Shown piece after piece: positions 50,369 to 54,934 of a stretch of 64,000 nt of DNA. The notes beneath the pieces are model-generated. The model was given only the letters and a program-made list of their open reading frames with translations, did no database searches and was not told the origin of the DNA. Position 1 is the stretch's first letter, and every line of letters begins with the position of its first letter. Both the position numbers and the translations under genes were made by a program. The DNA is from Aromatoleum toluvorans. Lineage in GTDB: Bacteria; Pseudomonadota; Gammaproteobacteria; Burkholderiales; Rhodocyclaceae. Location: assembly GCF_012910905.1 (NCBI RefSeq), contig NZ_WTVN01000028.1:1-64000 (forward strand), in the 5' to 3' direction.

Positions 50369-50593
50369 TCAGCGGCAGCCTGCGCTGTCCTGCACGCCGG
50401 CCTTGCGCAGGAAGATCTCCAGCGGACAGAAGCGCGTGAAGCCGCTCTGGAACAGGTTCGCGCCGACGAAGGCGGTGAACCACAGGAAGTTCTTGCTCAC
50501 GAACAGCGGCGAGCCTTCGACGCCGAGCGCGAGCGAGATCAGCACGAAGGCGCCCGCGAAGATGCGGACGAACTGGTTGACGGTCAGCGTCAT
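50369..50593 (-). CDS. DUF2892-family inner membrane protein
   Basis: The 74-residue protein has two helices (IFAGAFVLISLALG; NFLWFTAFVGANLFQSGF) and the family ending FCPLEIFLRKAGVQDS with CP motif. This domain is fused to rhodanese in YgaP and appears in sulfur or efflux operons. It overlaps the RND transporter gene by 4 bases, so it belongs to that operon. Function in the pump is unknown. Confidence 0.88.
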   Translation of the reverse strand: MTLTVNQFVRIFAGAFVLISLALGVEGSPLFVSKNFLWFTAFVGANLFQSGFTRFCPLEIFLRKAGVQDSAGCR

Positions 50594-53500
50594 GGTGTTT
50601 CTCCTTGCAGTTGCGCGACACGGCCCCGCATCGCGGCGAAGTACAGCACCGGGATGACCACCAGCGTCAGCACGGTGGACACGAAGATGCCGAAGATCAG
50701 GCTGATCGCCAGCCCGTTGAAGATGGGGTCGTCGAGGATGAAGAGCGCGCCGATCATCGCCGCGAGCGCGGTGAGGCCGATCGGCTTGGCGCGCACCGCG
50801 GCGGCGCGGATCACCGCCTCGCCGAGATCGACACCCGTGCGCACCTGGTGATTGACGAAGTCGACGAGCAGGATCGAGTTCCTGACGATGATGCCCGCGA
50901 GCGCGATCATGCCGATCATCGAGGTCGCGGTGAAATGCGCGCCGAGCAGCGCGTGGCCGGGCATCACGCCGATGATCGTGAGCGGGATCGGCGCCATGAT
51001 GATGAGCGGCACGAGGTAGCTGCGGAACTGCGCGACGACCAGCAGGTAGATCAGGATCAGGCCGACCGCGTAGGCGGCGCCCATGTCGCGGAAAGTCTCG
51101 TAGGTGACCTGCCACTCGCCGTCCCACTTCACGCTGTAGCCGGCGTAGGCGTCGGCCGGCTGGCGGATGAACCATTCGCCCAACGTCCCCGCGAGCCCCG
51201 CGGCACCGGCGAGCGGCATGCCGTTGATTTGCGCACGGATGTCGAACATGCCGTAGAGCGGCGAATCCAGCCGCCCGCCCATGTCGCCGGTCACATACAC
51301 GACCGGCAGCAGGTCCTTGCGGTAGATCACCTGTTCGCGCGTGATGTCCTGCACCGTGACGAGCTCGGACACCGACACCAGCATGCCGTCGCGCGCCCGC
51401 ACCTTCAACGCGAGCAGCGCATCGACGCTCGACTGCCGTTCCGACGGCAGCTGGATGCGCACCGGGATCTCGTACTTGTTGTCGCCGCCGTGGATCGGCG
51501 TGACGTTCTCGCCCGCGAGCCCCAGGCGCACCACCTCGACGATGTCCGCCTGCGCGACGCCCATGCGCGCGGCCTTGGCCTGGTCGACGCGCAGCACCTG
51601 CTTCGGCGCCGCCTCGTCGACGGTGTCGTCGACGTCCACGATGTCGGCCGCACCCTCGAACGCCGCCCGCACCCTGCCCGCGGCGGCCGTCTGCCCGGCG
51701 TAGTCCGGCCCGTACACCTCGGCGACGATCGGCGACAGCACCGGCGGCCCCGGCGGCACCTCGACGGTCTTCGCGTTGCCGCCCGCCGCGCGCGCGATGC
51801 GCGCGACTTCCGCTCGCACCGCGGTGGCGATCTCGTGGCTCTTGCGACTGCGGTGCTTCTTGTCGACGAGGTTCACCTGGATGTCGCCGACCTCCGGGGC
51901 GCTGCGCAGGTAATACTGGCGCACCAGGCCGTTGAAGTTGATCGGGCTCGCGGTGCCGGCATAGGCCTGCCAGTCGCTGACCTCCTCGACCGTACCGAGG
52001 TACTCGCCGACTTCGCGCAGCACCCGCGCCGTCTCCTCGACCGGCGTGCCGACCGGCATGTCGAGCACAACCTGGAACTCGCTCTTGTTGTCGAACGGCA
52101 GCATCTTCAGCACGACGAGCTGGAACACCGGCAACGCGACCGACGCGCCGATCAGCGCGACGACCGCGAGCCACAGCTTCAGGCGCGCCCGCCCGCCGCG
52201 CACCGGGTCCAGCATCGGCGTCATCGTCGCGCGGAAGACGCGGTCGAGGTGCGCCGTGAGCTTGTCCTCGCCCTCGTGGTGATGCGCGTCGACCGACTTC
52301 AGCAGGCGCTGCGCGAGCCAGGGCGTGACGACGAAGGCCACCGCGAGCGAAATGAACATGCCCATCGACGCATTGATCGGGATCGGGCTCATGTAGGGGC
52401 CCATCAGGCCGGTCACGAAGGCCATCGGCAGCAGCGCCGCGATCACCGTGAAGGTCGCGAGGATCGTCGGTCCGCCGACCTCATCGACCGCGCGCGGAAT
52501 CAGCTGCCACAGCGGCGTGTCGGGTTCCAGCGTGTGCCAGCGGTGGATGTTCTCGACGACCACGATGGCGTCGTCGACGAGGATGCCGATCGAGAAGATC
52601 AGCGCGAACAGGCTCACGCGGTTCAACGTGAAGCCCCACGCCCAGGACGCGAACAGCGTCGCCGCGAGCGTGAGGCCCACCGCAACGCCGACGATCAGCG
52701 CCTCGCGTCGGCCGAGCGCGAAGAACACCAACAGCACGACCGCGGCGGTCGCGAACACGAGCTTGCCGATCAGCGTGTTGGCCTTGTCGTTGGCGGTCTG
52801 ACCGTAGTTACGTGTGACGGTGAACTGCACGCCCTCGGGGATCAGCTCGCCGCGCAGCGCCTCGGCACGTGCGAGCACCGCGTCGGCGACGTCGGCGGCG
52901 TTGGCGCCGGGCTTCTTCGACACGGCCAGCGTGACCGCGGGGAACACGCCGTTCTCCGCGATGCCGGCCTGCGCGGCGGCCGCGCCGGTGCCGAACCACA
53001 CGTACTGCGAGGCCTGATCGGGGCCGTCCTCGATGCGCGCGACGTCGCGCATATACACCGGCTTGCCGCCGGTCGCGCCGACCACGAGGCTACGCACGTC
53101 CTCGGCCGATTCGAGATAGGTGCCGGTCTGCACCAGCACTTCCCGGTTGCCGGCGACGAGGCTGCCGGCGGGCTGCGACGCGTTCGCGAGCTGCAGCGCA
53201 GCGCGCACGTCCTGCGCCGTCACCCCGTGCGCGTTCATGCGCTGCGTGTCCATCAGCACGCGCACGACGTGCCCCGGCCCGCCGATGGTCGTCACGTCGC
53301 GCGTACCTTCGATGCGCTTGATCTCGAGCTCCACCGCGCGCGACACCTGCTGCATCGCGAAACCGCTGCGCTCCGGGTCCGCGGTCCAGAAAGTCAGACT
53401 GACGATCGGCACGTCGTCGATGCCCTTGGGCTTGACGATGGGTTCGCCGACGCCAAGCTGCGGACTCAGCCAGTCCTTGTTCGAATGCACCGTGTCGTAC

Positions 53501-53854: not shown

Positions 53855-54907
53855 TCAGCGCGCGGCGCCGTTGCGGGCGGCATGTGCGACGATGCCCGCC
53901 TGCACCGGATCGAGCGCGACCTCCTCGCCGCCGGCGAGCCCCGCCAGCACCTCGATGCTGCCATCCGCGAGCGCTTCGCCGGCACGGATCTGGCGCAGCG
54001 CGAAGCCGCCCTTGCCGTCGGCGACATAGACGCCGGTCAGCTCGCCACGCCGCAGGATCGCGCCGGCCGGGACGGCGATGCGCGAGCCTTCGCCGGTCAC
54101 AAAATGCACACGCGCGAAAGTCCCCGGCACCAGCCCTTCGGCGTTCGCCGGGAGGTCCACGCGCACGCGCACCGTGTGCGTGCGCGGATCGGCGGCGGGC
54201 AGCACGGTGACGCTCGCGGCATCCAGCCAGCGCTCCGAGTCGGGCAGCTCGACGCGCGCCCGGATCCGAGCCGACCCGACGCCGGCGAAGCGCTGCTGCG
54301 GCACATCGACGACCGCGCGCATCGCGGCCGGGTCATACACGGTCACGAGCTGCCGCCCCGGCTGGGCCATCTCTCCCGGTTCGACGTGGCGCGCCGCGAC
54401 CAGCCCCGACAGCGGCGCGACGATCGTCGTGTAGCCCTGCACCGTCGCCGCCTGGCCGCGCCCCGCACGCGCCGCGCGCAGCTGGGCCTCGGCCGCGTCG
54501 TAGGACGCCTTCGCCTGATCGAGCGCGGACTGGCTGACGAACTTGCGCTCGACGAGGCTCTTCGTGCGCTCGTAGGCCGCCTTCGCGTTGATCTGGTTGG
54601 CCTGCGCCTGCGCGATGCCGGCCTCGGCCCCCGCCACGGCCTGGCTCGCCTCGGCCGCATCGATGCGCAGCAGCACCTGCCCCTTCGCGACATGGTCGCC
54701 GGCATCGACCCTGAACTCGACGATGCGCCCCGGCACCTGCGCCGCCAGCGTCGCCTGGCGCACCGCCTCGAGTGTGGCCTCGGCGGGATGCGTCAGCCCG
54801 ACGGCACGCGCCTCGACGCGCTGCGTCGGCACCTCTGCCTGTGCGAAGTTTGCCACGGCCAGCGCGAACGCCGGCAAAACAATCCGGATGATGGAATATG
54901 TCGTCAT
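53855..54907 (-). CDS. RND efflux periplasmic adaptor
   Basis: The 350-residue HlyD-type adaptor has a signal peptide (LAVANFAQA/EV), a lipoyl half (AQVPGRIVEFRVDAGDHVAK), a coiled-coil hairpin rich in Ala/Gln, the second lipoyl half and a barrel. It pairs with the RND permease downstream. The ATG at 54907 is part of a perfect 24-bp palindrome; a TTG upstream start is read through the same palindrome and is unlikely. Confidence 0.9.
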   Translation of the reverse strand: MTTYSIIRIVLPAFALAVANFAQAEVPTQRVEARAVGLTHPAEATLEAVRQATLAAQVPGRIVEFRVDAGDHVAKGQVLLRIDAAEASQAVAGAEAGIAQAQANQINAKAAYERTKSLVERKFVSQSALDQAKASYDAAEAQLRAARAGRGQAATVQGYTTIVAPLSGLVAARHVEPGEMAQPGRQLVTVYDPAAMRAVVDVPQQRFAGVGSARIRARVELPDSERWLDAASVTVLPAADPRTHTVRVRVDLPANAEGLVPGTFARVHFVTGEGSRIAVPAGAILRRGELTGVYVADGKGGFALRQIRAGEALADGSIEVLAGLAGGEEVALDPVQAGIVAHAARNGAAR

Positions 54908-54934
54908 GAATATAAGTTTATTCTTATATTCATG
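54905..54934. promoter_or_regulatory. Perfect 12-6-12 palindrome over the pump operon start
   Basis: CATGAATATAAG (54905-54916) and CTTATATTCATG (54923-54934) are exact reverse complements with spacer TTTATT. The left arm contains the start codon of the adaptor gene (minus strand). The size and AT content suit an ArsR/SmtB-type dimeric repressor such as BigR/SqrR; no such regulator gene is in the window. Confidence 0.75.

What the first reader, a model, noticed from the sequence alone, without database searches (positions are those of the whole stretch)
50369..54934. RND pump with DUF2892 partner under a 12-6-12 palindrome that covers the start codon
The palindrome is perfect and contains the ATG of the adaptor gene, so a bound repressor would stop transcription and initiation. 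The type of site and the DUF2892 gene recall BigR/SqrR-YgaP sulfur-stress circuits, yet no ArsR-family gene is adjacent. The pump may export or respond to reactive sulfur or a related compound.
Basis: partly seen in the sequence, partly recalled or inferred. Interest (0 to 1): 0.6.

Follow-up and report, generated by a model that had tools for sequence, protein, structure and literature searches.

The report
Sulfur-sensor-controlled efflux pump operon
A pump operon in an Aromatoleum-like bacterium carries a palindromic DNA switch over its promoter that probably belongs to a repressor of a sulfur-sensing kind encoded elsewhere in the genome, which may also control the outer-membrane channel that such a pump needs.

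Summary
A perfect 12-6-12 palindrome (54905-54934) covers the -10 box and start codon of an adaptor-RND-DUF2892 operon (50369-54907, minus strand). TTGACT-16-TAAACT-7-ATG fits a leaderless transcript; 34 of 37 pump sites of this lineage keep TTGAC at that spacing. No ArsR gene is adjacent, but another contig holds a BigR/SqrR-like ArsR with both sensor cysteines, in arsR-rhodanese-glutaredoxin-secB. In two other families its orthologue lies beside the pump with such a palindrome between them (L057, L060). Pump and regulator co-occur: 85 of 97 pump genomes against 78 of 243 others. The site core recurs in 31 of 59 pump loci from the wider class (null 0.0046 per locus). A less perfect copy in the window's genome precedes pcm-rhodanese-tolC. 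Best reading: a trans-acting BigR-like repressor, relieved by sulfane sulfur, controls a tripartite pump. Binding, inducer and cargo are untested; 19 pump loci lack the site although their genomes have the regulator. New variant of a known kind. In Zoogloea the arms run into codon 2 and co-vary, a possible RNA lock.

The parts
54905..54934 (.). Palindromic operator; conserved core AATATAAG-N6-CTTATATT (54909-54930)
54937..54942 (-). -35 hexamer TTGACT, just outside the palindrome
   Evidence: consensus match, not evidence of function
54915..54920 (-). -10 hexamer TAAACT inside the palindrome (16-nt spacing)
54905..54907 (-). Adaptor start codon, 7 nt after the -10 box: predicted transcription start at or beside its A (leaderless)
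   Evidence: inference from geometry
53855..54907 (-). RND periplasmic adaptor (MFP), 350 aa, N terminus looks like a signal peptide (by eye)
50590..53844 (-). RND transporter, 1084 aa, below the curated cut-off of each of the 17 NCBIfam models it matches
50369..50593 (-). DUF2892 / YgaP-like TM protein, 74 aa; its start overlaps the RND gene's end by 4 nt

Best explanation
The palindrome is the operator of a BigR/SqrR-like dithiol ArsR repressor encoded in trans (G000 contig C26, 53960-54286, first gene of arsR-rhodanese-glutaredoxin-secB). Without inducer the dimer would sit on the -10 box and start point and keep RNA polymerase off the leaderless adaptor-RND-DUF2892 promoter. Sulfane sulfur (persulfide or polysulfide) would bridge its two cysteines (C36 and C102 in the numbering of the L060 orthologue), release the DNA and induce the pump, together with pcm-rhodanese-tolC from a second, less perfect copy of the operator (C56:16392-16411), which would supply the outer-membrane channel. 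Shown by sequence: operator, promoter-like geometry, regulator, linkage in other genomes, co-occurrence, second site. Inferred: binding, inducer, co-regulation, and that the pump removes a toxic product of sulfur stress with DUF2892 as a membrane partner.
For: Of 24 pump-orthologue loci L004-L027, 23 have the strict site in front of the adaptor gene, and 21 have DUF2892 behind the RND gene (L013 none found, L018 and L022 cut by the contig end). In the family 16 of 199 genomes have the strict pattern, one each, 14 in front of an adaptor gene and 2 in front of pcm; all 16 have the ArsR orthologue against 129 of the other 183. ArsR-site-adaptor-RND in L057 and L060; arsR-rhodanese-secB-gpsA-adaptor-RND in L198, arsR-tolC-adaptor-RND in L197 and, by eye, L196. 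Co-occurrence 85/97 against 78/243, Fisher odds ratio 15, p 1e-21, not corrected for phylogeny. Site core at 12 of 14 or better in 31 of 59 class pump loci (29 of 48 with the ArsR orthologue, 2 of 11 without), null 0.0046 per locus. Both cysteines 60/60, recognition helix GTSQSNISQHLAILRDK 53/60. The best solved match of the window genome's ArsR is BigR; for the L060 orthologue BigR, YgaV, HlyU and SqrR lead, and both cysteines align in all five alignments printed. The E. coli ygaVP promoter, footprinted by others, has two tandem TTTAG-N6-CTTAA boxes. A DUF2892 gene lies between arsR and rhodanese in 5 of 30 class loci, and none of those five genomes shows one beside its fetched pump locus. 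A second own-genome site, one mismatch, stands before pcm-rhodanese-tolC.
Against: No binding or expression data. 28 of 59 class pump loci lack the site at that threshold, 19 of them in genomes with the ArsR orthologue. In 30 of 30 family loci the arsR gene has no full site in its 3-kb stretch (best 12 of 16 matches, in L084 near the arsR start), so it is not autoregulated by this motif. 78 of 243 genomes without the pump and 129 of 183 family genomes without the strict site have the ArsR, so it has other duties. NCBIfam BigR 79 bits against a cut-off of 155; SqrR motif absent. The second-best solved match of the own ArsR is NolR, which lacks the first cysteine. Two pump loci with DUF2892 have a different adjacent ArsR without the cysteine pair (L146, L164), and in the tree these fall inside the orthologue group on a very long branch; only 5 of 22 inner branches are well supported. 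Of four extra exact sites in other genomes two (L225, L234) have no clear target.
Confidence: 0.7

Rival explanations
1. Same repressor, different signal: the dithiol ArsR senses another thiol-reactive stress (organometals, quinones, electrophiles, oxidants) and the pump is a general detoxification pump; the sulfur genes are neighbours by history.
For: The RND's closest solved relatives are multidrug pumps; the E. coli relative ygaVP is called a tributyltin-inducible operon in the title of a reference seen in a reference list; Aromatoleum degrades aromatics (recalled).
Against: Rhodanese genes recur next to the regulator (30 of 30 family and 27 of 30 class loci) and behind the second own site; a DUF4395-rhodanese gene lies beside the site in L091.
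Confidence: 0.2
2. A different, unidentified regulator binds the palindrome.
For: The regulator is not adjacent in the window; 2 of 11 pump loci whose genomes lack the orthologue still have the site, and 19 of 48 with the orthologue lack it.
Against: Of those two, G602 has its own adjacent dithiol ArsR and G783 is of the same genus as G653, which has the orthologue. Co-occurrence, and adjacency in other families. Of the own-genome hits to two ArsR/HTH models, the C51:176642 protein is the only other ArsR-like one that I recognised, with another recognition helix; L002 and L034-L037, L039, L040 look like Lrp, Fis/NtrC or IclR types by eye, and two weak hits were not looked at.
Confidence: 0.08
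3. The palindrome acts mainly as an RNA hairpin that hides the start codon.
For: Predicted RNA hairpin -14.6 kcal/mol, z -9.2, for the window; co-varying outer arms in Zoogloea.
Against: With the conserved promoter the left arm is not transcribed from it; in the class loci measured the site lies upstream of the gene; in loci of the window's type the flanks do not co-vary (1848 of 5000 permutations as stable).
Confidence: 0.05

Closest known systems
E. coli YgaV-YgaP (PMC9774250: section 3.2 and passages read)
   Same: Dithiol ArsR repressor that binds near the start point and sigma70 boxes; partner with the YgaP TM domain; similar TTTAG-N6-CTTAA boxes in the ygaVP promoter
   Different: YgaV represses its own operon and its partner is a thiosulfate sulfurtransferase with the TM domain; here the regulator is in trans, without the full site at its own gene, and the target is an RND pump with a separate TM protein
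SqrR / SoxR / sHdrR / BigR sulfane-sulfur ArsR repressors (PMC12423496: section 2.1 and passages read; its figures and supplement not seen)
   Same: Two conserved cysteines; that paper already names RND pumps and rhodaneses among the neighbours of such regulators
   Different: Below NCBIfam's BigR cut-off; ATTC-N8-GAAT absent from the window; regulator and pump unlinked here but joined by a conserved operator; a tolC operon with a copy of it; leaderless-type promoter
Multidrug RND pumps (closest solved: MdtB 9lyq, then 8f3e and 6vej, with MexK and AcrB further down)
   Same: RND permease plus adaptor, TolC-type channel elsewhere
   Different: Below the cut-off of each of 17 NCBIfam RND-type models matched; DUF2892 partner; cargo unknown

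Membership tests
Dithiol (SqrR/BigR/YgaV-type) ArsR repressors | ArsR HTH domain | tested here: met
   PF01022 49.5 bits, cut-off 22
Dithiol (SqrR/BigR/YgaV-type) ArsR repressors | Two sensor cysteines in the BigR/YgaV/SqrR columns | tested here: met
   own protein against BigR and YgaV, L060 orthologue against five chains, 60 of 60 orthologue loci looked at
Dithiol (SqrR/BigR/YgaV-type) ArsR repressors | Sulfane-sulfur-dependent release from DNA (tetrasulfide bridge) | not testable with these tools
   needs biochemistry; described for characterised relatives in PMC12423496 section 2.1
BigR proper (NCBIfam NF040642 equivalog) | Score above the curated cut-off | tested here: not met
   79.2 against 155 bits
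SqrR operator | ATTC-N8-GAAT at the promoter | tested here: not met
   0 matches in the window
YgaP | YgaP-like TM domain | tested here: met
   PF11127 51.1 bits, cut-off 25.3
YgaP | Rhodanese domain in the same protein | tested here: not met
   74-aa protein, only PF11127 found
Tripartite RND efflux pumps | RND permease plus periplasmic adaptor | tested here: met
Tripartite RND efflux pumps | Outer-membrane channel that works with the pump | tested here: inconclusive
   none in the operon; a TolC-family gene (TIGR01844 above cut-off) lies in the operon behind a second site at C56; pairing untested

The most novel reading that the evidence does not exclude
One palindrome, two locks. As DNA it is the repressor's operator; as RNA, in read-through transcripts from the close co-directional upstream gene, it folds over the start codon, so that only leaderless transcripts from the derepressed promoter, which lack the left arm, are translated. 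In Zoogloea selection has kept the outer arms complementary into codon 2 of the adaptor gene.
Probability: 0.15. Interest if true: 0.7.

Novelty: new variant of a known kind. Interest (0 to 1): 0.5.

Why it matters
It gives a concrete, testable trans-acting regulator for a pump found in 97 of 340 genomes sampled from the class, links a sulfur-sensing kind of repressor to a TolC-type efflux system, and gives a search motif (ATATWAG-N6-CTWATAT) for the regulon. If the pump also handles antibiotics or aromatics, sulfide stress would induce tolerance by a defined route.

Tried and rejected
Translation block by a DNA-bound repressor: rejected; leaderless geometry explains the overlap. RNA attenuator as the main mechanism in the window's clade: rejected. 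Literal SqrR motif: absent. Hit L058 lies inside mreD and is taken as chance; L092 is unexplained. The own-genome C95:57076 match (1 mismatch) has no clear target gene. The arsenic-type ArsR at C51 (type by eye) and the Lrp-, Fis- and IclR-like hits were set aside as regulators; two weak HTH_20 hits without a locus were not looked at. Distant adaptor hits L028-L032 lack the site. The tree has few well-supported forks and long branches and is not relied on. Two 2-mismatch searches give weak extra sites, not counted as regulon members. In one search four further rows (L047, L048 before pcm; L057, L060 of other families) do not show the TTGAC-16 / ATG at 6-7 geometry.

Rows chosen or dropped: of 97 pump genomes 60 loci were fetched: the first 40 mostly from the top of the list, the second 20 chosen to take in 11 of the 12 genomes without the orthologue together with three loci where regulator and pump seemed close, so the 59 are not a random sample; four of those 12 were already among them or in the first 40. 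L157 was skipped (adaptor at the contig end). In one search, 11 Zoogloea-type loci were aligned (L020 and L023 as near-duplicates, and L013, L027, L052-L056 left out). In one search, L011 and L050 were left out and identical sequences counted once (15 + 15). The list of 97 pump genomes was picked by eye at 58% identity or more, partial matches included. In one search, handle G131 was typed by mistake and counts among its 12 genomes.
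Full report
What is there. On the minus strand, adaptor (53855-54907), RND (50590-53844) and DUF2892/YgaP-like TM (50369-50593) form a tight operon. A perfect 12-6-12 palindrome at 54905-54934 includes the adaptor ATG; its inner part is unique in the 4.8-Mb genome at up to 3 mismatches. The genome's name is not given; the closest hits of the adaptor are Azoarcus and Aromatoleum at 85-93% identity, then Zoogloea.

Promoter. TTGACT lies just outside the palindrome, TAAACT inside it, 16 nt apart, with the ATG 7 nt further. One search listed 37 pump sites of this lineage (partly the same species in two collections; 30 distinct windows): 34 have TTGAC at exactly this spacing (exceptions L027, L050, L051), and all 37 have ATG 6 or 7 nt after the -10 box. 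This is the geometry of a leaderless transcript (inference). The four other rows (L047, L048 before pcm; L057, L060 of other families) lack it. The palindrome thus covers the -10 box and start point, a classical repressor position; the overlap with the start codon follows from the missing leader.

Conservation. Of 29 adaptor hits in the species collection, 24 (L004-L027) are pump orthologues and 23 of these have the strict site; L011 has a degenerate one, and the five distant hits have none. DUF2892 follows in 21 of the 24. In the family the pattern occurs in 16 of 199 genomes, once each: 14 in front of an adaptor gene, 2 in front of pcm. At order level 4 of 399 genomes match (own, L057, L058, L060), at class level 5 of 369 (own, L091-L094). 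Sixty pump loci of the wider class were fetched, 59 usable and not a random sample: the core ATATWAG-N6-CTWATAT reaches 12 of 14 within 300 bp upstream of the adaptor hit in 31, against 0.0046 per locus in shuffles.

The regulator. The genome has no adjacent ArsR gene but has one with two cysteines in the sensor columns of BigR and YgaV, in arsR-rhodanese-glutaredoxin-secB. Its orthologue stands directly beside the site and pump in L057 and L060, heads arsR-rhodanese-secB-gpsA-adaptor-RND in L198, and precedes tolC-adaptor-RND in L197 and, by eye, L196. Identity of the window genome's protein to those of L057, L060, L196 and L198 is 59 to 70%. Across 340 class genomes, 85 of 97 with the pump have it (E 1e-30 or better) against 78 of 243 without (related genomes are not independent). 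Of 44 chosen genomes 41 have it at E 2.2e-33 or better; G783, G751 and G797 do not, and the last two also lack the site while G783 has it. Cysteines are kept in 60 of 60 orthologue loci looked at and the recognition helix in 53 of 60.

Links to sulfur. A rhodanese gene lies beside the regulator in 30 of 30 family loci and 27 of 30 class loci. In 5 of those 30 class loci a DUF2892 gene lies between arsR and rhodanese, and none of these five genomes shows DUF2892 beside its fetched pump locus, as if the gene could serve from either operon. Two other pump loci have a different dithiol ArsR with DUF2892-adaptor-RND (L199, L202), and L202 shows the same kind of site. The E. coli ygaVP promoter, footprinted by others (PMC9774250, section 3.2 read), has two tandem boxes of the same N6 form (5 of 200 shuffles of the 4-kb stretch had two).

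A second target. With 2 mismatches allowed the own genome gives 9 places against 1 for the reversed control pattern; the perfect one is the pump, one of the two single-mismatch ones stands before pcm-rhodanese-tolC, and the other (C95) has no clear target. The pcm operon carries a site also in G071, G183, G599 (before pcm) and G649 (between pcm and tolC). In one search, 9 of 12 genomes had an exact site and four had a second one: two of these four are at pcm/tolC, two (L225, L234) are not explained. A pump with adaptor but no outer channel, and a channel operon with the same operator, would make a coherent regulon.

Against. 28 of 59 class loci lack the site, 19 of them in genomes with the orthologue. 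The regulator is not preceded by a full site in the family; the best is 12 of 16 near arsR in L084. It is below the NCBIfam BigR cut-off and the SqrR motif is absent. NolR, without the first cysteine, is the own protein's second-best solved match. L146 and L164 have DUF2892 next to the pump but another ArsR without the cysteine pair. Nothing here tests binding, inducer or cargo.

Zoogloea. In 11 aligned Zoogloea-type loci the arms run into codon 2 of the adaptor gene; the three pairs with codon 2 change on both sides in 5 to 7 of 11 sequences and none of the 11 is unpaired there. Against 500 shuffles, cells paired, cells changed on both sides and the covariation score were never reached, but the number of pairs changed on both sides was reached in 23 and the number of pair types in 115. 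Swapping flanks among 15 loci never gave as stable a set (0 of 5000), while for the 15 loci of the window's type 1848 of 5000 did. Template-switch mutation, an extended operator or an RNA lock on read-through messages could explain this; in 13 of 14 loci a long ORF on the same strand, chosen mechanically, ends within 100 nt of the site.

Literature. PMC12423496 (section 2.1 and passages read) already names RND pumps and rhodaneses near dithiol ArsR regulators. Searches showed no paper whose listing, or the passages that I opened, describes this DUF2892-RND operon with a trans-acting ArsR; the library lacks most subscription papers, among them the BigR paper looked up. PMC8269239 (passages) reports recurrent mutations in a gene called bigR in Achromobacter, associated with beta-lactam resistance; a link to this pump is not shown there. 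Of PMC7315123, PMC10451225, PMC13190847 and PMC6450195 only passages were seen.

Verdict. Observation confirmed; the regulator idea is largely right and a candidate can now be named; the sulfur inducer is likely, the cargo unknown. New variant of a known kind.

Noticed in passing
L014-L026 (Zoogloea-type), e.g. L019:6897-6946: Palindrome arms extend into codon 2 of the adaptor gene with compensatory changes between species; L027 has outer arms with a 4-nt bulge.
   Followed up: partly
window 20232-20251: Two-mismatch operator-like match (ACACAAG-CACATG-CTAATAT) about 70 bp upstream of a rhodanese-domain gene (20322-20786), behind a TonB-dependent receptor and a PepSY-TM gene.
   Followed up: partly
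L235 (own genome C56:12500-20500): A second RND gene (644-3865) lies directly upstream of the site and of pcm-rhodanese-tolC.
   Followed up: no
L028 (Allomuricauda), 7001-11629: Adaptor-RND-DUF2892 order also in a Bacteroidota genome (RND 43%, DUF2892 55% identity), without the strict site.
   Followed up: no
L091:1501-1524: Site next to a DUF4395-rhodanese gene, another sulfur-type candidate target.
   Followed up: no
L092:1501-1524: Site inside a longer inverted repeat without a recognisable target gene.
   Followed up: no
L225 and L234: Exact second sites in G640 and G781 without a clear target gene.
   Followed up: no
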